This document shows positions 4,006-22,967 of a stretch of 64,000 nt of DNA, piece after piece. The notes below the pieces were generated by a model. The model had not been told where the DNA came from and did no database searches. It saw nothing but the letters and a program-made list of their open reading frames with translations. A program made the translations under genes and the position numbers. The stretch comes from an uncultured Sulfurovum sp. (lineage in GTDB: Bacteria > Campylobacterota > Campylobacteria > Campylobacterales > Sulfurovaceae), in assembly GCA_902727895.1 (NCBI GenBank), contig CACVAP010000086.1:1-64000 (forward strand). The letters are read 5' to 3'. Position 1 is the first letter of the stretch, and every line of letters starts with the position of its first letter.

Positions 4006-4034
4006 TCTAGCATTCGTACTTCTACTGTTGGACT

Positions 4035-6687: not shown

Positions 6688-7398
6688 ATGACAATATTAT
6701 ATAATAATGAAGAAAAATTAAACTATGTTATTAAAAAACTAAACCTGCAAACAAAAGAAATTGCTCAAAAACTTGAAATCTCTCCTGCATTAATCTCTCA
6801 AATACAAAATCATTACAATGGAAAATTAAGAAAAATACACCTCTATGCTATTTGTAATGCCTATAACATTCCCATAGAGATTTTTGAAAGTGAAAACATT
6901 AATCAAGAAGAGATGATTGACAGCTTACTAGAAAAAAACAAACATACTGTTATGTTTCATAACAACCCTACCGTATTAGATAAGTTAGTCGGTCGTTGGT
7001 ATGTCTATAGCTACCCTAGTAATCCAAAACTTTCAGAAGTATGGTGTACAGAAACTACTATCTATGACACTTTTCAAGTTGAAGATGCGCATAAAAACAA
7101 AGGTAAACTCTATATAGGCGAAAAACAATCTATTATCTTAAAGGAAAGTAATAACAGTAAAAACATTACTTCTATTACTTTTGACAACAATAGAATAACC
7201 TATGAAACATTTCCTTTCTCTCGTGTCTCTAAGTCAAATAGTTTAAACAAAGAACTTTTTAATTTCGGTTTTTTTTCAAGAAGAAAACTGAGCATAGCAG
7301 AAGCTAAAGAAGTTCTTGGTTCACTAGATGAAGTTCAACTTCAAATGAATTATGGACTTTTAGAACGTATTAATTCTTGTATTCAAATGGAAGGCTAA
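6688..7398 (+). CDS. XRE-family transcriptional regulator with unknown C-terminal domain
   Basis: The 236-residue protein has a Cro/C1-type helix-turn-helix at about residues 12-65 (TKEIAQKLEISPALISQIQN). An unknown C-terminal domain begins near LVGRWYVYSY and resembles a small beta-barrel in its strand pattern. A good ribosome site (AAGGAAG) precedes the ATG. It is transcribed away from the TPR-CHAT gene and is followed after one base by a small lipoprotein gene, so the three may form one divergently regulated unit. The C-terminal part may sense a ligand; this is inference. Confidence 0.75.
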   Translation: MTILYNNEEKLNYVIKKLNLQTKEIAQKLEISPALISQIQNHYNGKLRKIHLYAICNAYNIPIEIFESENINQEEMIDSLLEKNKHTVMFHNNPTVLDKLVGRWYVYSYPSNPKLSEVWCTETTIYDTFQVEDAHKNKGKLYIGEKQSIILKESNNSKNITSITFDNNRITYETFPFSRVSKSNSLNKELFNFGFFSRRKLSIAEAKEVLGSLDEVQLQMNYGLLERINSCIQMEG

Positions 7399-7399
7399 A

Positions 7400-7792
7400 A
7401 TGAAAAAACATATTATTTATACACTTATCTTAGTACTAAGTTTAGTAGCTTGTTCAAGTACTTCACCCAAAACTCCAATTTCGGCTGTTGAAAACAACAA
7501 TACCATGATTATTGATTTAGACAAAGAATCTAAATCAAATACAGACTTACGAGGTAAAGACACCCTAATTATAGATACACCTATTTATGTTGGAGATAAT
7601 GATGAAGTTTCATTTATAGGTGACATTATTGAAAAGAACTCACCGATTCAAGTAAAAATTGGTGACAATGACGAAGTTTCATTTACAGGGAAAAGTTATA
7701 AGATTAATACTATGGAATTACGTAATGGAGACATTATCAAAATGACAGGAAAGTCTGGAAATATTTTTGTAGAAATGGAAGTAGTCCAGTAA
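7400..7792 (+). CDS. Small lipoprotein with duplicated GDNDEVSF motif
   Basis: The 130-residue protein begins with a lipoprotein signal peptide (LVLSLVAC, Cys18). The mature part contains two near-identical segments, VGDNDEVSFIGD and IGDNDEVSFTGK, which look like repeated beta-hairpins. It starts one base after the XRE regulator stop and is certainly co-transcribed. Its 3' end overlaps the convergent gene at 7718-8128 by 75 bases. I do not recognise a family; it could be the regulator's envelope partner. Confidence 0.65.
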   Translation: MKKHIIYTLILVLSLVACSSTSPKTPISAVENNNTMIIDLDKESKSNTDLRGKDTLIIDTPIYVGDNDEVSFIGDIIEKNSPIQVKIGDNDEVSFTGKSYKINTMELRNGDIIKMTGKSGNIFVEMEVVQ

Positions 7793-8128
7793 AATATTAT
7801 TGTATAGAGCCTGAACTTCTTTAAAGAAATTCAGAACTCTTTTTCCAAGTGAAGGTTTTAAAACGCTAAGGAGAGTGTGATGTGGTAACCTAAATTCAAC
7901 ATCAACACTTTTAAGCTTAAAAGAGGGAATAGCTCCTCTAAGTAAAGAGTTATAACGCTCTTCACTCTGAACAACTTGAACATAAGGAAAATGATTAATC
8001 AACCAACGAAGAAAGTTTTTTTCTAACCATGAAGAAACCTCTATAGAGACTTTCTTCTCTTTCGCATAGAGAACAATACTCTGCTCCACTTGCGCTATGT
8101 TAATAACATTTCTTCCTTTGTTTTTCAT
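7718..8128 (-). CDS. Small hypothetical protein, last gene of the WGR-propeller cluster
   Basis: This 136-residue protein has no signal peptide or membrane segment and no domain I can name. The first about 108 residues look like a compact alpha/beta protein. The last about 25 run into the end of the convergent lipoprotein gene and may be a read-through extension after loss of an earlier stop. It begins six bases after the stop of the 233-residue membrane protein, so translation is probably coupled. Confidence 0.55.
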   Translation of the reverse strand: MKNKGRNVINIAQVEQSIVLYAKEKKVSIEVSSWLEKNFLRWLINHFPYVQVVQSEERYNSLLRGAIPSFKLKSVDVEFRLPHHTLLSVLKPSLGKRVLNFFKEVQALYNNILLDYFHFYKNISRLSCHFDNVSIT

Positions 8129-8134
8129 TTTTAT

Positions 8135-8836
8135 CTATCTTGAACGTGCTAAATCTTCAACATCAATCCAACCAAAGAACTCATCTGGAGTTTCTCCATC
8201 TTCATTCTCAACATCATCTTGAAACATGTCTAAACGTGCTTCATCATTCGCATCTTTTGCCAAAGGAAGCATTGTAGTTATGTAGGTATTTAACGCTGTA
8301 TAAACAGCATCATTTCCTTCTTTGTCATAAAGACCAAAAGTCTTAGGAGTTACATAGTCTTTCTTCTCAAAAATAAAAGCATTAAAGACAGCGTCACTCA
8401 TCTGTTCTCTACAATCCGTGTCATAAATTTCTCCATTTTCTAAAGCTATCTCAGCTAAACTATTGAGTAACCTTTCTAAAACTTTTTGCTTTTCATCATA
8501 CTCTCTATCTTCAACTTCATCATTATCAAGATAATCACTAAACTCATCATCAATTGCAGCATGTTCTGATCTTGCTTTATAGGCTTTAGCCATCATTACT
8601 TTGGCAAAAACAAGTCCTGCTACACCAATAACATTAAAAGCAAAAGAGAGCCAAAAAAACCATGTTGTCCCCCAGATAAAATAGATGGCTATTGTCACAG
8701 CGATCCAAATAATTGTCTGCACGATTCCTTTTTTAATTTTCTGTTCAGCATCCTCTACACTTTGATTTGCAATTGCATCCAAATTAGCCAATGTTTCTTC
8801 AGCTCTTTTTATTGTATCGTCCATATCTTTTGACAT
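8135..8836 (-). CDS. Membrane protein with two transmembrane helices and acidic C-terminus
   Basis: The 233-residue protein has a short cytoplasmic helix, a hairpin of two membrane helices (about residues 40-60 and 64-84) and a long acidic soluble domain ending in DEFFGWIDVEDLARSR. I do not recognise a family. Its start overlaps the stop of the 243-residue gene by one base, and together they follow the WGR-propeller gene. The architecture suggests a partner subunit of a membrane complex. Confidence 0.65.
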   Translation of the reverse strand: MSKDMDDTIKRAEETLANLDAIANQSVEDAEQKIKKGIVQTIIWIAVTIAIYFIWGTTWFFWLSFAFNVIGVAGLVFAKVMMAKAYKARSEHAAIDDEFSDYLDNDEVEDREYDEKQKVLERLLNSLAEIALENGEIYDTDCREQMSDAVFNAFIFEKKDYVTPKTFGLYDKEGNDAVYTALNTYITTMLPLAKDANDEARLDMFQDDVENEDGETPDEFFGWIDVEDLARSR

Positions 8837-9567
8837 TATTTTTTCCTTTTAAATAAATTTGCTACAGCATCATAAAATTTGATACTCCAGTGTTCTTTTT
8901 CTTCTTTAGCTATGAAAGCATTAAACGCCATAACATCCTCTAGTTGAGTGGTCCCTTTGAGTCTTTCAACACTTATATTATTTTCATGTTGAGAGTCTAT
9001 AAAGTGCCTAGCACCTTTAACCCACTTTTGATGTTTTTTATGTTTAAAATAGCTAGAAACTATGTCAAATACAGACCATGCTACAAGAAAGGTAAAAATT
9101 AAATTCCAGCAAAGAAAATAACCAAGTACAGCATAAAAAACGATACTGAATAAATGTAACTTAACTCTTTTCAAATCACTTAATCTAAATCTTTCGTTAA
9201 AAGTATCTAAAGCATCTAAACTCTTCTCTACATTTGTTATCTCGACATCTCTAAAAGTATCATCAGAAAGAAGATACTTCTTTTTATACTCCACAAGACC
9301 TATTTTAGAAAAAGTTGATTTGGTAAAAATAACTTTAAGGTTTTTCCACCAAGGCTTAGTTAGTACATCAAGCTCTTTAACTTCTTGATTAAACTTATCT
9401 AATTCATCAAGCGTGTACATTCTAAAATCAAAAGAGGAAGCATCACGTTCCTCTTCTTCCTCATCCCATTCTTCATATTCATTTTCTTCATGCAAATCAT
9501 ACTTATTAGGTGTCGATTCTATTTCTCTACGTTTGGAAAAGTTTCCTATTTCGTCATTTAAGCCCAT
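8836..9567 (-). CDS. Membrane protein with acidic N-terminus
   Basis: The 243-residue protein has a strongly acidic N-terminal stretch (EEWDEEEEERDASS, about residues 31-44), a soluble helical part, and a hydrophobic hairpin at about residues 139-172. The C-terminal part is basic. It lies two bases after the WGR-propeller stop and overlaps the next membrane protein. No named family is visible. The pair of two-helix membrane proteins next to a WGR protein looks conserved by design rather than chance, but only a comparative search can show it. Confidence 0.65.
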   Translation of the reverse strand: MGLNDEIGNFSKRREIESTPNKYDLHEENEYEEWDEEEEERDASSFDFRMYTLDELDKFNQEVKELDVLTKPWWKNLKVIFTKSTFSKIGLVEYKKKYLLSDDTFRDVEITNVEKSLDALDTFNERFRLSDLKRVKLHLFSIVFYAVLGYFLCWNLIFTFLVAWSVFDIVSSYFKHKKHQKWVKGARHFIDSQHENNISVERLKGTTQLEDVMAFNAFIAKEEKEHWSIKFYDAVANLFKRKK

Positions 9568-9569
9568 AG

Positions 9570-11021
9570 CTATTCACTCTCTAAACGTTTAATATCTCCA
9601 TACGCTCGGTAAAAGCCACCAGCTCCCGACTCTTTAACTTCGTCAACAACATATAAAGCACCCTCTTCTCGTAAGTTCTGAGGAAATTGAACATTCCAAG
9701 AACGCTCATAACCTTCTGAAACAACATGCACACGAAGTTTTGAACCTTTTTTACTACACTTCACCACCACACCATCGCTAATGTCTTTGGTGATTTCAAG
9801 CTCTTTGTCATTAAGTACTTCAACTGCTTTAGGTGCTTTAATACTTTTAGCTTCTGTAAATGTTCCCTCTTGTGCTTGAGCAATGGCTGTTTCGGAAGCA
9901 TCAATACATGCCATAGCCCCAGTTGTTGTTACAATGTAAAGCTTTTCATTTAAATACTGCATAGAGTAAGCCGATCCACAACCTGTACCAAGCTTCCAAA
10001 GACGTTCACCCTCTTTCGTAAAACAGTAAACAGAAGAATAGTTATCTCCAGCAAAAATGTATTCACCACCTTTAGAAGTAGCACAAGAGAAAACAGAGGC
10101 ATCACACTTATACGTCTGCTCAATCTTCCCTTGTTTTGTAATAGCCTGAACTACATTTGAAGTTGTTCCTACATAAAGCATCTCTTCATCTTGGTAACCA
10201 AAAAGAACCTGCCCTTGTGTTTTACAATCCCAAACATCGTCATCTGACATTTTATCTGGGTCTTCCCAACCATCATAAACTGTCACACCATTAGAGTGAC
10301 CATGATAAACACGCTCTTTGTCACAGCGAATCATCCAACCTGCAGTACCAGAGCTTTGATATTTAGAAATACCTTCATCTTCATAGTTTGTAATGAGTAC
10401 ATTTCCCTTTGCATCAGAAACCCCAAGAAGACCATCATAAATATCTATCCAGTAAATATCAACACCCTCTTCAATGTCATAAGCCACACGAGGCATTTTT
10501 CCTGTAAGGTCATACACTTTTCCATCATCACAACCAGCATAAAGCCAGTCGCCATCAGAAACAATAGATTTCACACCATCTTTCAGTCTAAACTGACGTT
10601 GTACTTCACCTTGTGGATTTAACTTAAAGATACTTCCTTTTTCATTTCCAACCCAACAACTCTCTTCATCGACAAAAATACCAAAGGCATCAGCCCCTGA
10701 AGCAAACTGCCAAAGTACAGGTGCTGTCTTAGAAGTAGAACGGTTACTGGTAATCGTACGTCTGGTAATGGCTCTAGGTGCGCGTTCTCCTTGTACAGCT
10801 AGGGCATAACCTTTTTTCTCTTTGGCTTTTATCTTCTTTCCTGCTTCAGCCAAAGCTTTTTCATGTGTTGCTAAGGTCTTAACAGAACAAGTACCTTTCG
10901 CACCAATACGTCCATAACGAATGCTCATATCACATCCTTCAACGGTCACTTCATAAAACTTATGTGCAGCACCTGTATCTTCTGATAACTCTAAATATTT
11001 TTTTTCTATTGTCTCTGACAT
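9570..11021 (-). CDS. WGR domain-beta-propeller protein
   Basis: The 483-residue protein opens with a WGR domain (about residues 8-70; core MSIRYGRIGAKGT, then a helix AEAGKKIKAKEKKGY), a nucleic-acid-associated fold named for its Trp-Gly-Arg motif, here Tyr-Gly-Arg. Residues of about 100-375 form a WD40/PQQ-like propeller with repeated blade motifs (IVSDGDWLYAGCDDGKVYDL). A C-terminal beta domain ends in FYRAYGDIKR. It starts a cluster with two membrane proteins and follows a ZorA/ZorB-like pair on the same strand. The retron operon 7 kb away also encodes a WGR protein. Function unknown; a sensor or scaffold role is inferred. Confidence 0.8.
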   Translation of the reverse strand: MSETIEKKYLELSEDTGAAHKFYEVTVEGCDMSIRYGRIGAKGTCSVKTLATHEKALAEAGKKIKAKEKKGYALAVQGERAPRAITRRTITSNRSTSKTAPVLWQFASGADAFGIFVDEESCWVGNEKGSIFKLNPQGEVQRQFRLKDGVKSIVSDGDWLYAGCDDGKVYDLTGKMPRVAYDIEEGVDIYWIDIYDGLLGVSDAKGNVLITNYEDEGISKYQSSGTAGWMIRCDKERVYHGHSNGVTVYDGWEDPDKMSDDDVWDCKTQGQVLFGYQDEEMLYVGTTSNVVQAITKQGKIEQTYKCDASVFSCATSKGGEYIFAGDNYSSVYCFTKEGERLWKLGTGCGSAYSMQYLNEKLYIVTTTGAMACIDASETAIAQAQEGTFTEAKSIKAPKAVEVLNDKELEITKDISDGVVVKCSKKGSKLRVHVVSEGYERSWNVQFPQNLREEGALYVVDEVKESGAGGFYRAYGDIKRLESE

Positions 11022-11241
11022 TTATATTCCTTTAAAATTTATTAACCTAAAATTTGACTCCAAATTGTAGGGTCGTCACTAACTATGCATAAGGATGATG
11101 GTGAGATTATCTTATTTTTCATGAAAGCTTTTGATTTCTTTCTTGTCAAAATCTTAATAATTTATTAAAAAATAATACTAATATAGTATTGATTGTTTTT
11201 TACTTAAATTATCAAAAAGTATACACAATATAGAGCCTAAA

Positions 11242-11263
11242 AGTTGGTAAATAATTGGTAAAT
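11242..11263. promoter_or_regulatory. 11-bp-phased direct repeat (second copy of shared motif)
   Basis: AGTTGGTAAAT at 11242-11252 and AATTGGTAAAT at 11253-11263 form a tandem pair about 220 bases upstream of the WGR-propeller start and 32 bases beyond the stop of the ZorB-like gene. It matches the pairs at 2940-2961 and 23447-23468 in sequence, orientation and 11-bp period. Confidence 0.45.
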
Positions 11264-11294
11264 TTTAAAGGGAAGAAAGAGGTTAGGATTTTTC

Positions 11295-11924
11295 TTACTT
11301 CTTTCCTTCTTTTAAATCTCTCAACCTAGAAAGCCGAATCTCAATTCGACGACGTAATTTATTACTAGAAACCTCATCCATAGAGGCAATTTTTCCACTA
11401 TCATCAATGAACCCACCAGCACTATAAGGGCGTATTATTTTAATGCTTGAATTTTTATTTACAAGCTTAGGTGTTAAAAAATTGACCACCGAAACAGCCC
11501 TTTTCATTCCCAACTCTAAATTGGAAGAGGCTTCAACGACATTCATGTCACAGCCTCGTACCAAACAATTATGCAAAGACTTATCAAATGACTGTTTGAT
11601 AGCATGACCTCCCCCAAAAGGTTTTCCATCGGTATAACCATAGACTTCGACAATGTCACATTTGTATTTTTTAGCAAATTGTTCTATTTTGGAAATGACC
11701 GAACTGTTTAGACTCACTTGAAAGTTTTCATTCAACGTTGCCGAACCCGAACCAAATGAATACCCATGTGCCTCATCCAAAACAATCAAAGGAGGTTGTT
11801 GATGCTCTTTTAATTTTGAGATGTAAAAAGAAGTGATAATAAAAAGTAAAACCATCACAATCATCAAAACAATAAAAATCTCACTCTGCATGGTAGCAGA
11901 ACTCTGTTTTTGACCTTGTCTCAT
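11295..11924 (-). CDS. MotB/ZorB-like OmpA-family membrane protein
   Basis: The 209-residue protein has one N-terminal membrane helix (about residues 15-36) and a periplasmic OmpA/MotB-like peptidoglycan-binding domain (EVYGYTDG at about 94, then LGMKRAVSVVNFL, then LRRRIEIRLSRL at the end). In MotB and ZorB an Asp near the start of the helix carries the proton. Here the only acidic residue in that place is Glu15 (MQSEIFIVL). It overlaps the MotA/ZorA-like gene by four bases. This is the stator-anchor half of an ion-driven motor pair; it is not near flagellar genes. Confidence 0.75.
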   Translation of the reverse strand: MRQGQKQSSATMQSEIFIVLMIVMVLLFIITSFYISKLKEHQQPPLIVLDEAHGYSFGSGSATLNENFQVSLNSSVISKIEQFAKKYKCDIVEVYGYTDGKPFGGGHAIKQSFDKSLHNCLVRGCDMNVVEASSNLELGMKRAVSVVNFLTPKLVNKNSSIKIIRPYSAGGFIDDSGKIASMDEVSSNKLRRRIEIRLSRLRDLKEGKK

Positions 11925-13000
11925 GATGAGGATTTATCTTTTCTTTTTATATTGGCAATGAAGTCATCTAAGTTCGTAAGCATCTCGCCTGCTTTTGGTA
12001 AAGTCTGTGCAATGGTTGAGATTTCATCTATCACCTTTTGACTGGTATGTGTCAACTGATCTATGGCAGAGTCTGAATGGGTAGAAAATCGTTTCATAGT
12101 TTTCAAATGTTTATCCCATTCTTTAGCAATATCTCCCATTTTATTCAGTCCATTGTCAAAAGTATCTATTGAGTTTCTAAACACTTTATCTGCATCCGTA
12201 GAGCTTCGTTCAAACTGATTCTTCATTAACTGAGAACTTTGTTCTATCTGCTTAAATTGTTCTTCTAATAGTGCTAAAGAATCTTTAATTATTTTTTGAG
12301 AATACTCCGAAGTATTTTTAAGATCTCGCTCCATAACCGTGCTAATACCTTCTAAGTTATGCTCCATTTTTTTATAAATATTGTCAAAACTTTCACTGAG
12401 AAGTGCATTCATCTCTTCTGAACGCTTGGCTGTCTCTTTCAGTTCCATTTCCAATTGCTCTGAAGTATTATGAACTTGATGGGTACTTTTATCGATGGTT
12501 TCTGCCCAAAACTTTGAACTTTTTTCTATAAGTAGTGCTGAGTTTGTAACTTTTTGAGCTAAAAACTCTAAAGCATTATTTGTTTCTTCTTCAGTTGAAA
12601 CTTTCAAACGATACTTCTCACGTTCCATCTCTTTACCAAATGCCCAACCAATAATACTCGTAATCAACGACGACCCAATAGGTGCAATAATATTTTCAAC
12701 ATGTTCAATCACCTCTGAACCATACTTAGCTGTCAAAATAAGTGCCACAGAAGTTCCAATAAGTGTGTGTAAATACCCCATCGTAGAAACACGGTTTCCT
12801 ACTTCAAAATTATAAGCCCTCTCTCTAATGGCAAAAAATCCTAACACCACCAAAACAACCATATGTTGAATCCCTACCAATAAAAAAAGCCCTCCTGCAT
12901 TGTCTCTAATAAACGCCACATCAGCATAAAGCCCTATCATCAAAGCAATGGCAACGACAAAACCAAACCACCATATAATACTAAAAAGTATTTTTATCAT
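11921..13000 (-). CDS. MotA/TolQ/ZorA-like channel protein with long coiled-coil tail
   Basis: The 359-residue protein has about four membrane helices in the first 125 residues, including the paired segment GYLHTLIGTSVALIL and APIGSSLITSIIGWAFGKE that resembles the proton-channel helices of MotA/ExbB/ZorA. Residues of about 130-345 are a continuous amphipathic helix or coiled coil (KTAKRSEEMNALLSESFDN). A long cytoplasmic tail after a MotA-like head is the hallmark of ZorA in Zorya defence. No ZorC, ZorD or ZorE is present, so this is not a standard Zorya. It abuts the 170-residue gene upstream (TAA directly followed by ATG). Confidence 0.7.
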   Translation of the reverse strand: MIKILFSIIWWFGFVVAIALMIGLYADVAFIRDNAGGLFLLVGIQHMVVLVVLGFFAIRERAYNFEVGNRVSTMGYLHTLIGTSVALILTAKYGSEVIEHVENIIAPIGSSLITSIIGWAFGKEMEREKYRLKVSTEEETNNALEFLAQKVTNSALLIEKSSKFWAETIDKSTHQVHNTSEQLEMELKETAKRSEEMNALLSESFDNIYKKMEHNLEGISTVMERDLKNTSEYSQKIIKDSLALLEEQFKQIEQSSQLMKNQFERSSTDADKVFRNSIDTFDNGLNKMGDIAKEWDKHLKTMKRFSTHSDSAIDQLTHTSQKVIDEISTIAQTLPKAGEMLTNLDDFIANIKRKDKSSS

Positions 13001-13513
13001 TTATCTATCCTTCTCATTTTTTAATTTATTCATCTCGTTAAGCAATCTGTCCACCTCTTCTAAATTGCCATTTGTCAAAGCAACATAAACAGGTCTACTA
13101 TCAAACGCCTCTTCACTTCTTAATCCATCCATTGTTCGTAATCTTCCAATAATTCTGTTTAATACAAAAGAGTTAATCAACCCATCTTCCTCAGCAAAAG
13201 TCATACAGAAATCTTCAAAAGATTTTCGAGGTGTTTTACTTTGGAGTTCAAAAATAGTAATCTCAGGAACATAACGAACCCCAATACTTGAAAAAAGTGC
13301 TACTAGAATTTCTTTAGAAAGTTGTGGAAAAGCTTTATAATATTCAAGAGGCTTATCCTCTATATCTTTGGGGAGTTCATAATAAGAAGAAGGTTTTCTT
13401 GAATGAGTTTCAAGGTACGTAAGAGGTAAGCGATGAGCATCTCCATATTTTATACGATTAATTATCTTTTTAAAGTTCTTTTTTAAACTTTTGCTAAATG
13501 ATTGAAAAGGCAC
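13001..13513 (-). CDS. Hypothetical protein heading the ZorA/ZorB-like operon
   Basis: The 170-residue protein has a basic N-terminus (FSKSLKKNFKKIINRIKYGD) and an acidic C-terminal helix, with no signal peptide or membrane helix. I do not recognise a domain. Its stop is immediately followed by the ATG of the channel gene, so the products should be made together. It could be a cytoplasmic partner of the motor-like pair. Confidence 0.6.
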   Translation of the reverse strand: MPFQSFSKSLKKNFKKIINRIKYGDAHRLPLTYLETHSRKPSSYYELPKDIEDKPLEYYKAFPQLSKEILVALFSSIGVRYVPEITIFELQSKTPRKSFEDFCMTFAEEDGLINSFVLNRIIGRLRTMDGLRSEEAFDSRPVYVALTNGNLEEVDRLLNEMNKLKNEKDR

Positions 13514-13775
13514 ACAGAATCCTAATAAATATTTATAGAATCATAGCGTAAGTGTTGTAATTCAGGGCTTTACTCTCTCTCAAACTTAGTATTTTTTACC
13601 TAAAAATAAAATGACTTCTTTCTGATTGATATAAACTTATTAAAGAGAAGATTTCATTTCATAAAGTTGTCAATAATCCCATCTACCATTGCATATACTA
13701 GAACATCTAAGTTTACATATCGATATTTAGTAAAATGTGCTAAAATCCATAAAAACTTTCATAAATGGGAAAAGA

Positions 13776-14582
13776 ATGCTTAAATTCAAAAAATGGCTCT
13801 ATTTAGCATTAACCTTAGTGGCATTATATTACATCTTTATCGTAAACATATTAGTAACACTTTCAATTCTAGCTTCGCTTTTTATAGCATTTCAAGTCTA
13901 TAAGGTTTATGCTAGAAGGAAATTAAATAAGCTTTCAAGTTCTAAAGAACTGTTTAGGGAGAGTGAGCTTGGCGTTTTTATTGCGCTTGTTGCCAAAGTC
14001 GCAAAAGCTGATGGGAGAGTCAGTGAATTAGAGGCACAACTTATTGCTATTATGTTTGATGATATTTCTAAAGTATTTATAGAAAAAGATAAAACCAGAA
14101 ACATTTTAAAAGAGATTTTTAATGAAGAAAAAGAAAAAACAGATAATACAAAAGAAGTAGCACAGTCTTTAAATAAACTATTAGGACGTAGCCGACTAAA
14201 ACCTAAGAAGTTTGTATCATTTTTAATTCAACTTGCATTAATAGACAGTAGTATCTCTTCTGCTGAAGACAAAGTTTTACGTGAAATTGTCAATGAATTA
14301 AACATGACGACTGATGAATACAATCAAATACTAAACAAATTTAATAGCATGAGACAAAATAAACAAGAAAGCATGAGCCTTAGCGAAGCCTATAAAGTTT
14401 TAGGGGTTAATGAAGGTGATGACATGAATACCATTAAGAAAACCTATAGAGGTCTTGTACGTAAATACCATCCCGACATTATAAAGTCACAAGATAAAGA
14501 TGACGCTTATATGGAAGAAGCTACTGCTAAGACACAGCAACTTAACCAAGCTTATCAGTTGATTAAGAAAATGAGAAATTAA
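13776..14582 (+). CDS. TerB-like/DnaJ-domain membrane protein (DjlA-like)
   Basis: The protein has an N-terminal membrane hairpin (LALTLVALYYIFIVNILVTL region), then a TerB-like helical domain (VAKVAKADGRVSELEAQLI and ALIDSSISSAEDKVL), and a C-terminal J domain with the HPD motif in RKYHPDII. The order is that of DjlA, a membrane co-chaperone of DnaK. The ATG at 13776 (MLKFKKWLY) is preferred over an upstream GTG at 13737 because it gives the usual short cytoplasmic N-terminus. It is divergent from the ZorA/B-like operon, with about 260 AT-rich bases between. Confidence 0.8.
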   Translation: MLKFKKWLYLALTLVALYYIFIVNILVTLSILASLFIAFQVYKVYARRKLNKLSSSKELFRESELGVFIALVAKVAKADGRVSELEAQLIAIMFDDISKVFIEKDKTRNILKEIFNEEKEKTDNTKEVAQSLNKLLGRSRLKPKKFVSFLIQLALIDSSISSAEDKVLREIVNELNMTTDEYNQILNKFNSMRQNKQESMSLSEAYKVLGVNEGDDMNTIKKTYRGLVRKYHPDIIKSQDKDDAYMEEATAKTQQLNQAYQLIKKMRN

Positions 14583-14830
14583 TAGAGTTTATAATGAAGT
14601 TAGCCAACTAAGGGAAGAAGCTTAGTTTAGATATAAATCAGATGTCAATTTCAATATCTTTTTAAATCAAAAAATATTTTTCATTTAAAAATTTTAACAC
14701 GAAATATTTTATTATATTGAAGCTATATGACTTTGTCGTATTTTAGCTGTTATTTAGGAATATACAACCTCTTATTGTTATAATGTTCCTTGAATAAACA
14801 GTTAGGCATACCTACATATAAAGGCAATAA

Positions 14831-15751
14831 ATGGGAATTGGACATAAAGATATTAAGTTACTTTGGGGACGGTCTGGGAATAGATGTGCAATATGCAAAA
14901 CTGAATTAACACAGGATAAAAAAGCAGTGAGTAGTTCTTTTACATTGGGAGAACAAGCTCATATTATTGGTGAAAAAGAGGATGCTGCAAGAGGGAAAAG
15001 TCAATTATCACTAAATGAGCGAAATACATATCATAATTTGATATTACTTTGTCCAACGCATCATACTGAAATAGATAAAAATGCAGAAGATTGGTCAGTA
15101 GAAAAACTACATTTAAAAAAATCAGAACATGAGCTATGGGTAACAGAAAAGTTAAGCGAAACTATAGACCATGTTTTATTAGCAAAACAAACAGCTATAA
15201 GTAGTGTTATTGATTCGGCAGTTGAGTTATGTGAACTAAATTCTTGGAAAAATTGGACTAGCTATGCGTTAGCCCCTAACCCAGTTTGGAAAAGTGAAAG
15301 GATAGAAAAAGTTTTTGAATTTCGTCAAAAAGTCATTTCTGCAATTTGGCCCAAGGAATTTAGTAAATTAAAAAATGCAACAATTACATTATCAATATTA
15401 TTAAATTCTGCAGCTCAAAAATTTGCTGACAACTCTACTAAAGCTAATGACAATTTATATGCATACAAATTTTATAAAGCTCATGGATATAATGATAACT
15501 ATCATAAGGATCTCAAAAAGTATGATAAATGGCTTGATGAATGTTATTATTTATTGAGAGAAGCAACTAAAGCTGCGAATTGGTTTGCTGATGAAGTGAG
15601 AGAATATATCAACCCTATGTTTTTTGCTGAAAAAGGCAAATACTTAATAGAAGAAGGACCTTTCATGGATATGAGTTTTCGCACAACATTACTGGAGTTC
15701 TCAGAAGAAGAAAAAAGTACTTTTCCTGAAGCACTAGACTTAAATGTCTAA
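14831..15751 (+). CDS. HNH endonuclease-domain protein
   Basis: The 306-residue protein has an HNH nuclease at residues 10-80. Zinc ligands C19-x2-C22 and C74-x2-H77, the catalytic-type His44 in EQAHIIG, Asn69 and His78 are all present, so the nuclease is likely active. The rest (about 110-306) is helical and unknown, probably the specificity or sensing part. A ribosome site AAGG precedes the start. It stands alone between the DjlA-like gene and a toxin module, in a region rich in defence-type genes. Solitary HNH proteins of this form occur as restriction or retron-type effectors, but nothing ties this one to a system. Confidence 0.75.
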   Translation: MGIGHKDIKLLWGRSGNRCAICKTELTQDKKAVSSSFTLGEQAHIIGEKEDAARGKSQLSLNERNTYHNLILLCPTHHTEIDKNAEDWSVEKLHLKKSEHELWVTEKLSETIDHVLLAKQTAISSVIDSAVELCELNSWKNWTSYALAPNPVWKSERIEKVFEFRQKVISAIWPKEFSKLKNATITLSILLNSAAQKFADNSTKANDNLYAYKFYKAHGYNDNYHKDLKKYDKWLDECYYLLREATKAANWFADEVREYINPMFFAEKGKYLIEEGPFMDMSFRTTLLEFSEEEKSTFPEALDLNV

Positions 15752-15833
15752 CAAATACGAATAAAAGAAACATAAAGGGATAGGCTACTTTAATTAAAAA
15801 TTTACTCAATAATAAACTTCAAAAAAGCTATGC

Positions 15834-15839
15834 TATAAT
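15834..15839 (+). promoter_or_regulatory. Extended -10 promoter box of the toxin module
   Basis: TATGCTATAAT ends at 15839, about 25 bases upstream of the ATG at 15864. The same TATGCTATAAT string occurs before priA (minus strand) and ppk1, suggesting it is the housekeeping extended -10 element of this organism. Confidence 0.55.
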
Positions 15840-15863
15840 TGAGAAATACCAAAGGAGCTAATA

Positions 15864-16265: not shown

Positions 16266-16271
16266 AATTTT

Positions 16272-16559: not shown

Positions 16560-16580
16560 AGGGTCGATAACTCAACCCTT
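16559..16580. terminator. Weak bidirectional hairpin between toxin and SWIM genes
   Basis: AAGGGT at 16559-16564 pairs with ACCCTT at 16575-16580 around a 10-base loop, starting at the toxin stop codon and 24 bases beyond the SWIM gene end. Short stem and no clean U run; it may end both convergent transcripts. Confidence 0.35.
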
Positions 16581-16603
16581 AACTAAGAAATAAAATAAAA
16601 AAC

Positions 16604-18241
16604 CTACTTCCCCCTACTCCACATAATCCTAGTAGCCAAAATATGCTCACAAGGTCCTTTATGCAATTTATTTTGCCCAAAGTACCAACAGTTACAAGTA
16701 GCATCTTTTAGTTTCATTTCATTGTCTATTACAAGCATGGTGCTGTAAGTTTTAGCATTATCTAAAACTGAACCTCTTATTTGCGTACTCTCTGCTTGTT
16801 GATACACTTTACCCATGGTTACCAAGTTTGCTAATACAAAGTTAGAAGCTTTTTCTTCACGTTCATTGGTAAACTGTAATTTGTCCATTGGTAGTGGGTC
16901 ACCTGAAAGTTCTCTGACTCTATAAGTCTTTTTATTCATGTCATAAAGTACTCTACCTTGCTGAGCATAAATGCCTAAAGCTGACTCAATAATAGGTTTG
17001 TCTAAACCTAAACGTGTCGCAAGACTTTGTGAACTCTCTACATGATTCTTAGTCAATGCGTCAAATACTTTTTTAGAAGTCATTGAATCAACTTCTGCTC
17101 TTGGACTCATGAGGTCAAAGTTGGCTGAAGAAGACCAATCATTGGCTGACCAACCACTTAAACCCAAAGTAAAGTTCATAGCTCCTAAATCTGCTTCCCA
17201 AAAACTTGGCATACCCGAACCTAGAAGACTTACCTTAAAACTTTTTGCCACAGGTAACAGACGTTCTAAGATGAACAGTCTTCGTCGTCCCCAAATACGA
17301 ATCTCTTGGCTAGTTTTTCCTTCGTAAATGCTTCGTCTAAAAGTTAGTTTCTTACCCCAAGGTTCAAACAAAACTTCCACAGGCTTGTCAGGTTGAAGTA
17401 TGAATCTTAGTGAACGTGGTGACTTTCTTTCTTTGTTTCTTTTGAGCATTAACAAGATGTTATACATATCCATCGGATGCAAAGTAAATGAAGTCTTCTC
17501 TAAAGTCATGGCAGAAGATATTTGTAAAAAACCACGTACCCATGAATCTGGTAAATCTATTTTTTCTTCTTTAAAGTCATCGGCTAATTCTGTCTGTACT
17601 TCAAATCCACTGGGGTCAATCTGAAACGTTGTCTCTTTATAGTCACGAATCTTTTGAAACTCATCATACAGTTTTTCAGAATAATCAATGTTCGTTGTTC
17701 CGTAAGAATGTTCATCAATGTCTTTAAAAGTATCGTAAGAACAAGACAGTTTTCCATAGCTTGACTCATCTTGTGAGAAACACTCAAAAAACACTTCATC
17801 AGGATGCACGGTAATCACAGGATCTAGTACAAACCAAGCATCAGAATCATGTTTATAAAGGTAGTCAAAATATTTACGTTGTGCTTTATAATAAGGCTGT
17901 AAAAGTGTATCTTCTTTAGTTCTAATGGCATTTAGTTCTCTTTGAACTCGATCATATTGTTCTTGATGCTTTTCTTTTTCAGCAACTAACTTTGCCAACC
18001 AAACTTTCTCTTGACTCTCTAACCATTCTTTGTAGTCAGACTTGTCTTTAGGTTTAAAACTCATGTCAGAAACTACCACGTCATGCAGTGCAGACATGGC
18101 TTCACGAAAGTTTAGTGAGTCTTGTAGTTTTGCCAAAAAAAAAGTAGGCTCTCGGTTAAGGTCAGGGCTAAAACTCATGTCTGTACTTGTATTACTCGAA
18201 CTAACGCCTGAATTGCCTTTAAATTTGTAATCAAACTCCAT
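16604..18241 (-). CDS. Winged-helix SWIM zinc-finger protein, retron accessory
   Basis: The 545-residue protein ends in a SWIM motif, CNCWYFGQNKLHKGPCEH (C-x-C-x12-C-x-H), a zinc-binding fold that contacts DNA or protein. A winged-helix-like segment lies at about residues 390-445 (SKKVFDALTKNHVESSQSLA then ALGIYAQQGRVLYD). A coiled coil lies at about 80-115. Its ATG overlaps the stop of the WGR-ARM gene (TAATG), and both follow the retron reverse transcriptase. This is the WHSWIM component that I recall for type XIII retrons. It is probably the effector or its DNA-binding partner; the mechanism is unknown. Confidence 0.8.
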   Translation of the reverse strand: MEFDYKFKGNSGVSSSNTSTDMSFSPDLNREPTFFLAKLQDSLNFREAMSALHDVVVSDMSFKPKDKSDYKEWLESQEKVWLAKLVAEKEKHQEQYDRVQRELNAIRTKEDTLLQPYYKAQRKYFDYLYKHDSDAWFVLDPVITVHPDEVFFECFSQDESSYGKLSCSYDTFKDIDEHSYGTTNIDYSEKLYDEFQKIRDYKETTFQIDPSGFEVQTELADDFKEEKIDLPDSWVRGFLQISSAMTLEKTSFTLHPMDMYNILLMLKRNKERKSPRSLRFILQPDKPVEVLFEPWGKKLTFRRSIYEGKTSQEIRIWGRRRLFILERLLPVAKSFKVSLLGSGMPSFWEADLGAMNFTLGLSGWSANDWSSSANFDLMSPRAEVDSMTSKKVFDALTKNHVESSQSLATRLGLDKPIIESALGIYAQQGRVLYDMNKKTYRVRELSGDPLPMDKLQFTNEREEKASNFVLANLVTMGKVYQQAESTQIRGSVLDNAKTYSTMLVIDNEMKLKDATCNCWYFGQNKLHKGPCEHILATRIMWSRGK

Positions 18242-21200
18242 TACACAACCTCTCTTTTTTCTACTTCTAGCATCTTTAATGGTAATGCTATTTCAGGATA
18301 TTTCTCTGCTATATACGCCATCATCTCCACATACAACTCTTTGTCAGACCAAACCATGGTAGCTGAATGATGAGAAGCCAAACGCCCTACCATTTCTGCT
18401 ATTTCTGGATTTTCTAAACGCTTTTTCAAGAGTTGCATTGTTCTTGTTTTAGCTACTCTATTTTGATTGACTGAATGTAAAAGGGTGTTAAAGAAACGCT
18501 CCATCTTTAACAACTGGTCATCAGACATTTCACCGAGCATAAGGTCAGTCACAAACTTTTGAATGGTCAGTGCTGGATGTTGAGAGAGTTTGCTTAGAAG
18601 TACTTCGGTGTCATAGTCTCCAAGTCCTATCATCTTTTTAGCAAATGCTTGTACATCTGCATAATTAGAGTCAGCTACTACCACAATATCATCTGTACTC
18701 ATTTCAAAATTTTCAAAATACCCAGAAGCAAATACCCTTGTGTCTTCCCAAGCAGAATCAAAAATCATAAGTGATTTTGGCATGGCTTCTTTTACAAGTT
18801 TCACATTATCCATGTAAGCATCATAAGCCCAAACTCTTACTTTTTTGTTTGGATTTTTCGCCATTCTAGCCCATTGAACTACTGAAAAGTCTGTGGCTTT
18901 ATACGCTGCTAAAATTAAAGAACCCAAAGCCACAGCCAACTTAGACTTAGCAATAAGCATTCGGTAAAGCTGGTCAGGTTCAATAGCTCCATAACTCCTT
19001 TTCATGCTCTTTACGGTCATTGTCACATTTTTAGCTACCTCATCAGAAGCAGATACAAAGGATTTTTCAACAATGGCTCTTAAAAGAACTTTTCCACTTT
19101 CCTTATCCATCGCCAATTTTTCAATAATAGCTCTAGCCTCTTTATGCACAGCTTTTTCTTCATGGTAAAGGAAAGTAACCAGCATCTCATGTGCAGCCAT
19201 CAGTTCACTTGGCTCTAACTGTCCAAGTAGGTAAATGGTGGTCGCTAACATTTCAGGGTGTTCATACTTGGCTATTTTTTCTTTAAGTGCTAAAGGAAGT
19301 TCCAAGTGAACCAATGCTTTGAGCCTAATAATTCTTACAGCAAAAAGATGACGTTCATTGAGTTCATCTTCTGCCATAAGTTTTGTAATATCTTCAACAT
19401 TTATGACTTCTGTTGAATAGCGTAGAAGTTTGTACATTCTCTGTACTTCTACAGGTTTAAATGGAAAAGTATCTCTAAGAATCTTAGAAACAATATCGTC
19501 GACTATGACTCTTTTATTTTCTAACTTCGGTACTAAAGTAAAAATTTGATCCATGCATGCTACATTACATTTTTCAATAATCTCAACCATTATGTTCTCT
19601 TCTAACAAAAAGTCTAAATTAGTGCTAATCTTCTCAATAGCAAAAGCATTAATTTCTTCATCTTCACTAAAAAGACAAGCTTTAATAATTCGTGTATCTT
19701 CTGTTTTAGCATACTGCTCTTTCAGTACTTCAAAGAAGAGTTTTCTAGCTTCATCATGTGCTAAGTTCATCATCTGTAAAAGCATCTCTAACGCAATGTT
19801 TTTTAACGCTTCAGGATTGTCTTTTAAAATGTTAAAGGCAAAAGTTTGAACCAAGAGGACTTTACTATTTGCTAAAATTTCAACTACTGTTTCTACATTT
19901 TTGTCCCAAAGTTCTTTATGCAGTTCTGGACGTATTTCATCTTTAATATTTTTATTGGCTGTTTCCCATACTTTTTTAGAAGGTGCTAACATATAACGCT
20001 GACCTGCTCCATATAAAATCTTCATAAAGGTTAGATGAGAAGCATAAGCATCATACTTTTTAGTTTTCATATTCCAATTGTCATCATAGTACTCAGTAGT
20101 GAACGCTGCAAACTCTTTTTCGTACCCATTAACAGAAAGTAAGACATTTTTAGCAAATTCTATGTAGGCATCTTCATTATGCGTTGACAAATGTTCTAAA
20201 TGACGTAAACTTCTCTTTTTAAAATACTGTCGTGAACACCCTAAACTTCTCTTGTTGTCTGCATTCCATTCATATATCTCATAACATGCCATTTTCTTTG
20301 ACTCTATTTTAGAGATTAACTGTGCTAACACTTTATGGTCGTCACGCATATCTGCCATCTTATAAAGTCTTCTAAAGAGTGAGAAGTTAAATTCAGTCAG
20401 AGGTAAATAAGTAATAACAGAAGAAAGTGCTTCATGCATAAATTCATCTACCGAGGCATACATATAAAGTTTTAGGTAAAGTTCATCGGCACTTTGGAGT
20501 AAAGGCATTAACTCATCTTTAACACGCTTTTTATCTTCTTCATACCAAGAATCTACATTTTTATAACGTAGGTAAGTACTGCTTATCATTTCATCTAAAA
20601 GTTTTACTTGTGTTCTAAAGTTTTCTAAGTCTCTATTTTTCAATGCTGTTTTAAATGGCATTGAAAAAGTAAGTTCTTTTATTTGTCGAGTTTCAAGGTC
20701 TTCTTTTAGTAAAAAAAGTGCCTCTTCAACAATGTACTTAGAACCATCATCAAGTTTGTCTCTAAGCGACTCAATGCTTGGGCGTAAAGAAGAGTCTCTA
20801 AAACGTCCTAATGCCCAAGTTACAGCATAGTAAAAAGCATTAGAACTTTCAACATCTTGATTGTAAAGATCTAAAATATACTGTTTACTCTCTTCTAGTT
20901 TTAATGTTCCAGCTTTATAAATCAGTCTTGAAACATTATAGTTGTCCAATGTTTTAAAAGAAGTGCTAACCGTTGTAACGGTTTCTCTACTACTGTGTAA
21001 AGCTCTAAATCCTGTTACTCCATTACTGGCTCGGGTAGTTGTCGATTCTTCAGATTCAACTTCTCCAGCACGACTTAAACGCTCTACTAATAATGCTTTA
21101 TATTCATCTGAAGACAAAACATTACGCTCTTTCTTCTCTTCTTTTTTTGTAGCATCATAACCCTGTTTTACAACATAGTCTTTATTCATTTTAGAAACGA

Positions 21201-21402
21201 CCAAAGAGTCAAAAAGTTTTTGAGCCCTTTCAAGTCCTACAGGAGATGACGTTTTTGTACCGTCTCTAAGTGTTGAACCAAATCTTCCGTATTCGAAATT
21301 TACCAAGTATTCAGAAGAACTCACTTCAATAAGATAAACATTATAAACTTTGTTAGAAGTACCTTTTTGATAGTGCAATAGTGTTGTTTTAATTGTTTTC
21401 AT
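18241..21402 (-). CDS. WGR domain plus HEAT/ARM-repeat protein, retron accessory
   Basis: The 1053-residue protein begins with a WGR-type domain (about residues 15-80; core VNFEYGRFGSTLRDGTKT). A linker rich in Glu and Ser follows, then about 900 residues of helical repeats of HEAT/ARM type (VVQWARMAKNPNKKVRVWAY, LLRAIVEKSFVSASDEVAKN and others). No catalytic motif is visible, so it looks like a large scaffold. A strong AGGAGG ribosome site precedes the ATG, 11 bases after the reverse transcriptase stop. It corresponds to the ARM protein I recall from type XIII retrons; the WGR head could bind the msDNA or nicked DNA (inference). Confidence 0.8.
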   Translation of the reverse strand: MKTIKTTLLHYQKGTSNKVYNVYLIEVSSSEYLVNFEYGRFGSTLRDGTKTSSPVGLERAQKLFDSLVVSKMNKDYVVKQGYDATKKEEKKERNVLSSDEYKALLVERLSRAGEVESEESTTTRASNGVTGFRALHSSRETVTTVSTSFKTLDNYNVSRLIYKAGTLKLEESKQYILDLYNQDVESSNAFYYAVTWALGRFRDSSLRPSIESLRDKLDDGSKYIVEEALFLLKEDLETRQIKELTFSMPFKTALKNRDLENFRTQVKLLDEMISSTYLRYKNVDSWYEEDKKRVKDELMPLLQSADELYLKLYMYASVDEFMHEALSSVITYLPLTEFNFSLFRRLYKMADMRDDHKVLAQLISKIESKKMACYEIYEWNADNKRSLGCSRQYFKKRSLRHLEHLSTHNEDAYIEFAKNVLLSVNGYEKEFAAFTTEYYDDNWNMKTKKYDAYASHLTFMKILYGAGQRYMLAPSKKVWETANKNIKDEIRPELHKELWDKNVETVVEILANSKVLLVQTFAFNILKDNPEALKNIALEMLLQMMNLAHDEARKLFFEVLKEQYAKTEDTRIIKACLFSEDEEINAFAIEKISTNLDFLLEENIMVEIIEKCNVACMDQIFTLVPKLENKRVIVDDIVSKILRDTFPFKPVEVQRMYKLLRYSTEVINVEDITKLMAEDELNERHLFAVRIIRLKALVHLELPLALKEKIAKYEHPEMLATTIYLLGQLEPSELMAAHEMLVTFLYHEEKAVHKEARAIIEKLAMDKESGKVLLRAIVEKSFVSASDEVAKNVTMTVKSMKRSYGAIEPDQLYRMLIAKSKLAVALGSLILAAYKATDFSVVQWARMAKNPNKKVRVWAYDAYMDNVKLVKEAMPKSLMIFDSAWEDTRVFASGYFENFEMSTDDIVVVADSNYADVQAFAKKMIGLGDYDTEVLLSKLSQHPALTIQKFVTDLMLGEMSDDQLLKMERFFNTLLHSVNQNRVAKTRTMQLLKKRLENPEIAEMVGRLASHHSATMVWSDKELYVEMMAYIAEKYPEIALPLKMLEVEKREVV

Positions 21403-21413
21403 AGCTACCTCCT

Positions 21414-22967
21414 CTACTTTCTAAACATGCTTAAAATATTGTTAACAAAAGATGGTGTTTCTTTTTGCTCAGCTACTTCTTTAACTTGCATTTCAGGCTC
21501 TAAAGTTTTCGCTTCAATCTCTTGAACTTTAGACTCCCAAGGCTGTTCCCCTTTGGCTGACTTAGCTCTAAATTCACCTGAACTTGAACCTAAATTTCCT
21601 AATGGATACTTTTCAAGTAATACTTCAACTTGTTTTTTATACTTCGCCCCTTTTTCAGGGTCTACCATGTTTATAAAATTCGCATAACCCCAAACAGAAG
21701 CCATCAAGTTTTCAGATTTTCCTTGCCATCTTTTACCCTCTAATCCACTCTCTTCTATTTGGTAAAGTAATGCCCTAAATTTTTTGAGATTTTTACGATT
21801 GACAGAAAGCTTTTCATTGACCACAATTCCTGTAACCTCATGTCTTGCACCTTTTTTCATAATCTTCGTTTTCTTAGGATGTAAAATAAAACCTTCTTCT
21901 TTTACAATGCCTTTAATCCAAAACATCATTTTGTTTATGTTTAAATAAGTGTCAGAAGAAAAAGTCATGTCATCAGCATAACGGGTGTAGTTAAAGTCCA
22001 ATGATTTAGAAATTCCACTCATCCGTTTATCCAATTTTCGACAAATAAGATTTGTAATCATCGGTGACGCTGGTGAACCCTGAGGTAAATAACGTTTACC
22101 CGTATAAAGGTAAAGTTTCTCACCATCTAAAAGTACCTCTTTTTGTTCTGCTTCCGTGGTCAAAATAGCCAAGATGGTTGCCAACTCAACCGAGTAACCC
22201 AAAGATTTAAAAAGCCCTTTAACTCGTGCATAGCTCAAAGTAGGAAAAAAGTTTTCTAAGTCACAGTTAATGACCAATGCCTTTTGTAAATGAGGTTTAG
22301 CATTAGAGACAATACTTCTTTTAGCCACAAAACCATGTGCTTCATTACTCACGGCTACTTTATTTAAAATGTTCTCTAAAATCCAATATTGTAAACGTTT
22401 GAGCTGAGGTTTAGGAGCAGATATCTCACGGAAACCTCCACTTTTTTTAACCATCTTAAAATGTACATAATCGGTTCTGTTTGAAAGTTTTTGTGTGTGG
22501 GTTAAAAAACGCAGTTCTTTAAGTGTTATGCCCATTTTAGAAGCCAAGTCTTTGGCATCTTTAATCAAAAAAAGATTGTTCTCATTTAATAATTTTTGAT
22601 TGCTTTCTTTTTCATCCAAGTCAGCCATAAAAGCATGACCGATAAAGCCGAGTTCACTATTTTTTTTCTCTTGACGCTTGGCAAGGTTCTCTTGAAAAAT
22701 TTTCTCTTTTTTAGCTTTTGTCTCTTCGCGTCTAAGTAGTGCATCTGCCATCCGTTGTTTATGAATATCTTTGATAACAGCTTCAGGGTTTCTAATCTTA
22801 GTTGAAAGCCCATTTAGTTCTTTTTGTAGTGCTGTCTTTTTTTCAATGAGTTCTTGTGCAACTTTTGGTTTAGCGCTGTCCCAAAAGCCAAGACGTTTCA
22901 TCTCAGATAAAATATAGCTGTCTTTGGAGGTCTTTTTTATTTCGTCGTATAGTTCTTGACGTGTCAT
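21414..22967 (-). CDS. Retron-type reverse transcriptase
   Basis: The 517-residue protein carries the full set of retron RT marks: NAKPH (222-226, the NAxxH motif), the catalytic Asp in NCDLENFF (about 236), LPQGSPASP (about 294-302), the YADD box (330-333) and the VTG triplet (378-380). An N-terminal extension of about 130 residues, Lys/Glu-rich and helical, precedes the RT core, and a C-terminal tail of about 65 residues follows, so it is longer than the usual 300-350 residue retron RT. It should copy the msd part of the structured RNA encoded 165 bases upstream, making a branched RNA-DNA. Followed directly by the WGR-ARM and SWIM genes. Confidence 0.9.
   Translation of the reverse strand: MTRQELYDEIKKTSKDSYILSEMKRLGFWDSAKPKVAQELIEKKTALQKELNGLSTKIRNPEAVIKDIHKQRMADALLRREETKAKKEKIFQENLAKRQEKKNSELGFIGHAFMADLDEKESNQKLLNENNLFLIKDAKDLASKMGITLKELRFLTHTQKLSNRTDYVHFKMVKKSGGFREISAPKPQLKRLQYWILENILNKVAVSNEAHGFVAKRSIVSNAKPHLQKALVINCDLENFFPTLSYARVKGLFKSLGYSVELATILAILTTEAEQKEVLLDGEKLYLYTGKRYLPQGSPASPMITNLICRKLDKRMSGISKSLDFNYTRYADDMTFSSDTYLNINKMMFWIKGIVKEEGFILHPKKTKIMKKGARHEVTGIVVNEKLSVNRKNLKKFRALLYQIEESGLEGKRWQGKSENLMASVWGYANFINMVDPEKGAKYKKQVEVLLEKYPLGNLGSSSGEFRAKSAKGEQPWESKVQEIEAKTLEPEMQVKEVAEQKETPSFVNNILSMFRK

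What the first reader, a model, noticed from the sequence alone, without database searches (positions are those of the whole stretch)
7718..13513. Candidate new membrane system: ZorA/ZorB-like motor with a WGR beta-propeller and two membrane proteins
Seven minus-strand genes are tightly packed in two blocks: 170 aa unknown, MotA/ZorA-like with a coiled-coil tail, and MotB/ZorB-like; then WGR-propeller, two membrane proteins with overlapping genes, and a 136 aa protein. Flagellar genes are absent. Known: Zorya uses ZorA/ZorB as a proton-driven envelope sensor plus ZorC/D or ZorE effectors, none of which are here. Inference: the WGR-propeller block may replace the effectors, or the two blocks may be independent neighbours. 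The setting, a defence-rich stretch, supports a defence or stress role.
Basis: partly seen in the sequence, partly recalled or inferred. Interest (0 to 1): 0.8.

Follow-up and report, generated by a model that had tools for sequence, protein, structure and literature searches.

The report
Three-gene Zorya-like motor beside a retron
Three of the seven genes form a small self-contained ion-driven membrane-motor set, distantly like the anti-phage Zorya motor but with an unknown partner protein; the other genes are a separate neighbour belonging to a retron defence locus, so the proposed seven-gene machine does not exist.

Summary
The seven ORFs exist as described, but they are not one system. The window is a Sulfurovum-type MAG.

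(1) p170, MotA-like and MotB-like (13513-11295, minus strand) form a conserved, tightly packed trio. It occurs in 7 of 34 genus genomes, always in that order, at several genomic sites, and never elsewhere beside the WGR block. In three genomes it fills a slot behind crcB where relatives carry a type II methyltransferase or a HEC-02 defence set. MotB-like has an OmpA domain and matches ZorB/MotB profiles. MotA-like matches only through TM3-TM4, weakly but consistently to ZorA2. A Glu replaces the motor Asp, the TM2-TM3 loop is about 16 aa, and no ZorC/D/E/F/G is present.

(2) The WGR-propeller is a widespread single gene. The two membrane proteins sit 15 nt behind the SWIM gene of the retron type XIII operon in relatives; here about 7 kb separates them. 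The 136-aa ORF is a truncated remnant of a PcfJ-like gene.

Best reading: an uncatalogued, laterally moving, Zorya-like 5:2 motor module with p170 as cytoplasmic partner. Motor nature is likely. A defence role is plausible but unproven.

The parts
13001..13513 (-). p170: 170 aa, no TM helix, no known family; first gene of the trio
   Evidence: Conserved upstream of MotA-like in 7/7 loci; no Pfam/PADLOC/NCBIfam/PDB match; AlphaFold model mostly helical, low-moderate confidence, no fold match; dN/dS 0.24
11921..13000 (-). MotA/TolQ/ExbB/ZorA-like subunit: hydrophobic TM1 and TM2, amphipathic TM3-TM4, about 16-aa TM2-TM3 loop, coiled-coil cytoplasmic tail
   Evidence: TM3-TM4 motif with Thr79 and Thr114/Ser115; 7/7 members match ZorA2 as best PADLOC family (E 0.005-0.05); A4 profile hits a MotA-like segment directly upstream of a ZorB-like gene (E 2.5e-5)
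11295..11924 (-). MotB/ZorB-like subunit: one TM helix and a periplasmic OmpA-type peptidoglycan-binding domain with an insertion
   Evidence: OmpA E 7.5e-6, just below the curated cut-off; 6/6 members match ZorB1, best E 1.4e-7; hhalign to Campylobacterota MotB-like family, prob 92.9, E 3.7e-7
11880..11882 (-). Codon of Glu15, invariant carboxylate at the TM start, in the place of the conserved Asp of MotB/ZorB
   Evidence: Invariant in alignment A2; manual alignment with 'SISDMMSG' of ZorB-like genes; Asp role from PMC11890865
9570..11021 (-). WGR domain + beta-propeller protein, 483 aa; NOT part of the motor module
   Evidence: WGR E 1.9e-15; only in genomes that also carry retron XIII SWIM; 47-55% identical relatives in Streptomyces, Nonomuraea, Deinococcus, Hymenobacter, without motor or retron annotation in the four regions viewed
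8836..9567 (-). Membrane protein m243 (TM hairpin); retron XIII-associated cargo
   Evidence: 15 nt behind SWIM in L035/L036; all 4 genomes with it carry SWIM_XIII
8135..8836 (-). Membrane protein m233; first ~92-98 aa shared with the 95-107 aa partner of m243
7718..8128 (-). 136-aa ORF: truncated N-terminus of a PcfJ-like gene (remnant)
16604..22967 (-). Retron type XIII operon: RT (21414-22967), WGR/HEAT (18241-21402), SWIM (16604-18241); neighbour from which m243/m233 are displaced
   Evidence: RT_XIII 568 bits, WGR_XIII 590 bits, SWIM_XIII 772 bits
23144..23358 (-). Candidate retron ncRNA, conserved and structured, upstream of RT
   Evidence: 84% identity to L049 over 217 nt; fold -54.5 kcal/mol, z -2.9; paired changes in the long hairpin visible in the two-sequence alignment

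Best explanation
The p170-MotA-MotB trio (13513-11295) is a self-contained, laterally moving three-gene module of the 5:2 ion-driven rotary motor superfamily, built like Zorya's ZorAB. Inferred mechanism: five MotA-like chains surround two MotB-like chains. The OmpA domains bind peptidoglycan. Ion flow past Glu15 and the Thr79/Thr114 ring turns or shifts the complex, and movement of the bundled coiled-coil tail acts on p170, the only constant partner, as cytoplasmic signal receiver or effector. The most likely use is sensing envelope damage, plausibly phage entry. Shown: gene set, conservation, motifs, separability from the WGR block, cargo-like distribution. Inferred: stoichiometry, ion flow, role of p170, defence. 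The WGR-propeller, m243 and m233 belong to the neighbouring retron XIII locus, and the 136-aa ORF is a remnant.
For: Trio in 7/34 genus genomes, same order every time. At least four site contexts: behind core vWA-crcB (three genomes), beside A2M, between CHAT and kinase, and in this window. The crcB slot in trio-less relatives or elsewhere in this genome holds a type II methyltransferase (G000, G024) or HEC-02 (G018). ZorB1 matches in 6/6 MotB-like; ZorA2 in 7/7 MotA-like TM regions; profile hit next to a ZorB-like gene; polar-ring residues invariant. WGR block separable and retron-linked.
Against: MotA-like similarity is weak: no PF01618 match, hhalign to MotA/TolQ not above membrane-protein controls, and the AlphaFold model failed (pLDDT 52). 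Glu replaces Asp. The PADLOC ZorB model also hits MotB-like proteins in 270/298 Campylobacterota genomes, so it does not single out Zorya. Some trio neighbours (A2M, vWA, transporters) are not defence genes. No phage or plasmid carrier was found.
Confidence: 0.65

Rival explanations
1. The trio is an envelope-maintenance or transport energiser (Tol/Ton/Agl-like) rather than a defence sensor: the motor acts on periplasmic partners such as A2M, vWA or CHAT proteins.
For: Same-strand neighbours upstream of p170 in other loci are mostly secreted: A2M (L018), vWA-crcB (L019-L021), CHAT (L022).
Against: vWA-crcB is a core genus pair present without the trio, so that linkage is by insertion site; no partner is constant; patchy 7/34 distribution and a cytoplasmic tail point away from housekeeping.
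Confidence: 0.3
2. One seven-gene membrane system in which the WGR-propeller block replaces Zorya effectors.
For: Adjacency and shared strand in this window only.
Against: 0 of 6 other trio loci carry it; 0 of 3 other WGR-propeller genomes carry the trio; overlap 1 genome against 0.8 expected; m243/m233 lie 15 nt behind SWIM in relatives; the 136-aa ORF is a remnant.
Confidence: 0.03
3. An ordinary MotAB, TolQR or ExbBD pair.
For: Same superfamily motifs; OmpA domain as in MotB.
Against: No FliG in the genome; not a PF01618 hit, unlike the genome's own five; coiled-coil tail; short TM2-TM3 loop; separate MotAB-like (C74) and ExbBD (C59) pairs exist in the same genome.
Confidence: 0.07
4. A genuine Zorya subtype using p170 in place of ZorC/D, ZorE or ZorF/G.
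For: p170 is encoded upstream of the A subunit; Zorya III shows that unrelated small partners can replace ZorCD/E (PMC8565338); tail and OmpA architecture match.
Against: ZorA/ZorB matches weak; conserved Asp is Glu; no room for the Zorya cytoplasmic domain between TM2 and TM3; no defence assay.
Confidence: 0.2
5. The 'MotA-like' protein is only a coiled-coil membrane anchor with no ion channel.
For: Weak superfamily signal; PDB and PADLOC hits with the full-length protein are coiled-coil driven.
Against: The TM region alone, without coiled coil, still picks ZorA2 and a MotA-like segment; it is the best conserved part of the protein and is paired with an OmpA/MotB-like gene.
Confidence: 0.08

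Closest known systems
Zorya ZorA/ZorB (types I-III)
   Same: A/B pair order; OmpA peptidoglycan-binding B subunit; A subunit with long cytoplasmic coiled-coil tail; conserved Thr/Ser in TM3-TM4; extra small partner gene
   Different: Glu instead of Asp on B; only about 16 aa between TM2 and TM3; no ZorC/D/E/F/G; profile scores far below curated cut-offs; partner p170 unrelated to any known Zorya gene
Campylobacterota MotAB-like pair (own genome C74; ZorB-like hits)
   Same: Same architecture; OmpA domain is the best profile-profile match to trio MotB (prob 92.9)
   Different: Keeps the Asp (WISYADLMAG), larger cytoplasmic loop, no p170 found beside it; ZorB-like matches near-universal in the phylum versus patchy trio
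TolQR / ExbBD
   Same: TM3-TM4 motif of the pentameric subunit
   Different: B subunit has an OmpA-type domain rather than the ExbD/TolR domain; no TolA/TonB partner gene seen beside it
Retron type XIII (neighbour)
   Same: RT_XIII, WGR_XIII and SWIM_XIII all present at 16604-22967, with a conserved structured RNA upstream
   Different: Independent of the trio; m243/m233 displaced from SWIM by about 7 kb here

Membership tests
5:2 ion-driven rotary motor superfamily | A subunit with MotA/TolQ/ExbB TM3-TM4 motif and polar Thr/Ser ring | tested here: met
   Thr79, Thr114 and Ser115 aligned and conserved; weak scores, so met by motif and consistent ranking rather than by a curated cut-off
5:2 ion-driven rotary motor superfamily | B subunit with a single N-terminal TM and conserved Asp | tested here: not met
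   Single TM 16-34, but invariant Glu15 instead of Asp: carboxylate kept, residue changed
5:2 ion-driven rotary motor superfamily | 5:2 stoichiometry and ion flow | not testable with these tools
   Needs cryo-EM and flux assays; AlphaFold monomer of the A subunit failed
Zorya | ZorB peptidoglycan-binding OmpA domain | tested here: met
Zorya | ZorA long cytoplasmic tail | tested here: met
   Coiled-coil C-terminal ~220 aa, variable length in relatives
Zorya | Additional cytoplasmic beta-sheet domain of ZorA (PMC12505986) | tested here: inconclusive
   TM2-TM3 loop only about 16 aa and tail predicted all-helical, but model confidence low
Zorya | ZorC+ZorD, ZorE, or ZorF+ZorG beside ZorAB | tested here: not met
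   No such PADLOC match for p170 or for flanking ORFs scanned
Zorya | Anti-phage activity | not testable with these tools
   No assay possible
Flagellar MotAB | Torque-generating interface between TM2 and TM3, and a FliG rotor in the genome | tested here: not met
   About 16-aa loop; FliG_C absent in G000
TolQR/ExbBD | PF01618 (MotA_ExbB) match in A subunit | tested here: not met
   Window protein not matched; five other places in the genome are
Retron type XIII (neighbour, not the trio) | RT_XIII + WGR_XIII + SWIM_XIII genes | tested here: met

The most novel reading that the evidence does not exclude
A previously undescribed class of Zorya-like envelope-sensing motor: a minimal A subunit without the usual TM2-TM3 cytoplasmic domain, a Glu-based ion site, and one small fast-evolving cytoplasmic partner (p170) that is the whole effector, moving between genomes as a three-gene defence cassette.
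Probability: 0.35. Interest if true: 0.68.

Novelty: new variant of a known kind. Interest (0 to 1): 0.5.

Why it matters
How ZorAB turns an event at the cell wall into action by cytoplasmic effectors is still being worked out. A naturally minimal motor with a single 170-aa partner, a stripped cytoplasmic loop and a natural Asp-to-Glu change would be a simpler system for testing that signal path. The case also shows that adjacency in a defence island can mislead: three unrelated histories (motor cassette, retron cargo, gene remnant) looked like one operon.

Tried and rejected
Seven-gene unit: rejected by distribution. Structure prediction of MotA-like: pLDDT 52, not used. p170 fold search: best E 1.7, nothing. 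Full-length MotA-like against PDB: only coiled-coil noise. Relatives in viral contigs, plasmids and phages: none. p170 in 398 other genomes of the order: none, though that draw favoured very complete genomes and left out most of the genus. Promoter and terminator scan of 7300-17000: promoter-like sites no more than shuffles, terminator-like sites within their spread; no significant fold in 11230-11310. LeoBC and HEAT-ARM_XIII PADLOC matches to the membrane protein and the propeller: weak and partial (the latter overlapping the WGR domain), not used. The apparently short motB in L017 is a scaffold gap (run of N), not a broken gene. L059-L068 rank high with the A4 profile but were fetched by it, so they are not independent support.
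Full report
WHAT IS THERE. The window lies in a 2.96 Mb draft genome of a Sulfurovum-type bacterium (named close relatives are Sulfurovum or Campylobacteraceae MAGs). The seven minus-strand ORFs exist as stated. p170 and motA abut, motA and motB overlap by 4 nt, and the WGR-propeller, m243, m233 and p136 ORFs are spaced by 0-6 nt. Sequence comparison with a close relative shows purifying selection on p170 (dN/dS 0.24), motA (0.06), the sequenced part of motB (0.13) and the WGR-propeller (0.07). No promoter or terminator signal rises clearly above shuffles between the blocks.

THE TRIO IS A UNIT OF ITS OWN. Searching 100 relatives with MotA-like found it in seven genomes, all of the same GTDB genus. 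In every one p170, MotA-like and MotB-like stand in the same order (alignments). None of the six other loci carries the WGR-propeller, m243, m233 or p136. Neighbours differ: an alpha-2-macroglobulin gene (L018); vWA and crcB genes (L019-L021); a CHAT gene upstream and a protein kinase downstream (L022). The vWA-crcB pair, usually with RsmD and NYN before it, is a core arrangement of the genus, present without the trio in most genomes, including this one at contig C46. Behind crcB, other genomes hold a type II C5 methyltransferase (G024 and this genome), a HEC-02 defence set (G018), tRNA genes or other genes. The trio therefore behaves as a cargo module that enters slots also used by defence genes.

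THE WGR BLOCK IS RETRON NEIGHBOURHOOD. Directly upstream of the region lies a complete retron type XIII gene set: RT_XIII 568 bits, WGR_XIII 590 bits, SWIM_XIII 772 bits. In the genus the WGR-propeller occurs in 4 of 34 genomes and m243 in 4 of 34, all among the nine with a SWIM_XIII match; the trio and the WGR-propeller share only this genome, against 0.8 expected (by hand, four of four inside nine of 34 has chance probability about 0.003). In L035 and L036 the m243 gene begins 15 nt behind the SWIM gene. In the window that junction is split: SWIM homology ends at 16608 and m243 homology starts at 9558, with about 7 kb in between holding the WGR-propeller, the trio, a TerB-DnaJ gene, an HNH gene and a likely toxin-antitoxin pair. 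The propeller homology is confined to 9566-11045, the gene and its ribosome-binding region. Outside the genus the propeller protein is a 47-55% identical gene without motor or retron annotation beside it in the four plasmid regions viewed. The 136-aa ORF shares its first 83 residues with full-length 391-aa PcfJ-like proteins, one of them elsewhere in the same contig, and is a remnant.

IS THE PAIR A MOTOR? MotB-like: OmpA domain (E 7.5e-6, just under the curated cut-off); 6/6 family members match ZorB1, best E 1.4e-7; hhalign against a Campylobacterota MotB-like family gives probability 92.9 and E 3.7e-7, while membrane controls score near zero. One TM helix at 16-34 is preceded by an invariant Glu15 where ZorB-like genes have Asp (SISDMMSG, WISYADLMAG). 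MotA-like: no PF01618 match, while five other places in the genome match it. With the coiled coil cut off, 7/7 members match ZorA2 as the leading PADLOC family through TM3-TM4 (E 0.005-0.05). Among 298 genomes of the phylum the best outside hit of the TM profile (E 2.5e-5) is a MotA-like segment directly upstream of a ZorB-like gene. The alignment places Thr79 on TM3 and Thr114/Ser115 on TM4 at the positions of the conserved polar residues, which in ZorAB and MotAB ring the B-subunit carboxylate (PMC11890865). This is consistent but individually weak evidence; structure prediction failed. Only about 16 residues lie between TM2 and TM3, far fewer than in the comparators aligned.

p170. No TM helix; no Pfam, NCBIfam, PADLOC or PDB match; a mostly helical low-moderate confidence model without fold match. 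It evolves faster than MotA-like (about 38-44% against 57-64% identity between this genome and the same four genomes), as a sensor or effector might. It is the only constant partner.

MECHANISM. Best-supported model, steps marked. Shown: a peptidoglycan-binding type B subunit, a TM3-TM4 channel-type A subunit with a cytoplasmic coiled coil, and a constant small cytoplasmic partner, co-inherited. Inferred from ZorAB (PMC11890865): 5:2 assembly, ion flow, tail signalling. Inferred only here: p170 receives the signal, Glu15 serves as ion site, and the trigger is envelope disturbance. Defence is favoured by the cargo slots and the setting, but not shown; I put it at about 0.4.

COMPARISON. Zorya types I and II use ZorC/D and ZorE; type III uses ZorF and ZorG (PMC8565338). 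None is here. By membership rules this is not filed as Zorya (Asp and effector tests not met); it probably works like ZorAB. It is not flagellar MotAB (no FliG; no torque interface) and not TolQR/ExbBD (no PF01618 match, OmpA-type B subunit).

LIMITS. Most genomes are incomplete MAGs, so absences are soft. Trio relatives outside the genus were not found in the collections searched, but the viral, plasmid, phage and genome-contig searches reach mainly close relatives. No experiment supports any function.

Noticed in passing
window 16604-22967 (-) and 23144-23358 (-): Complete retron type XIII (RT, WGR/HEAT, SWIM) with a conserved, strongly folding candidate ncRNA upstream of RT (z -2.9); the long hairpin shows paired changes against L049. 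In relatives the region behind SWIM is variable cargo (m243/m233, trypsin-like protease, APP1, YcxB).
   Followed up: partly
window 3412-6578 (-): A TPR-CHAT lipoprotein-type gene split over two ORFs (847 and 197 aa), the CHAT domain divided between them: a broken gene or an assembly error.
   Followed up: no
window 14831-16559 (+): HNH endonuclease of PDC-M68A/SAVED-HNH type and a likely two-gene toxin-antitoxin pair (133 + 95 aa) between the retron and the trio.
   Followed up: partly
L105, L110, L112, L019-L021: Slot behind the core vWA-crcB pair is a cargo site in this genus: C5 methyltransferase, HEC-02, tRNA cluster or the motor trio depending on genome.
   Followed up: partly
L069:6370-7601: In genome G106 a ComEA-like helix-hairpin-helix segment is read in frame into a MotA TM3-TM4 segment directly upstream of a ZorB-like gene: natural fusion or assembly artefact.
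   Followed up: no
window 11295-11924 (-): Three invariant cysteines (C89, C120, C125) in the periplasmic part of MotB-like, two of them in an insertion of the OmpA domain: possible disulfide.
   Followed up: no
L046:2668-4974: A retron XIII relative carries a 361-aa protein whose N-terminal part resembles the protease domain of retron type XI RT-protease fusions, next to an unknown 404-aa protein.
   Followed up: no
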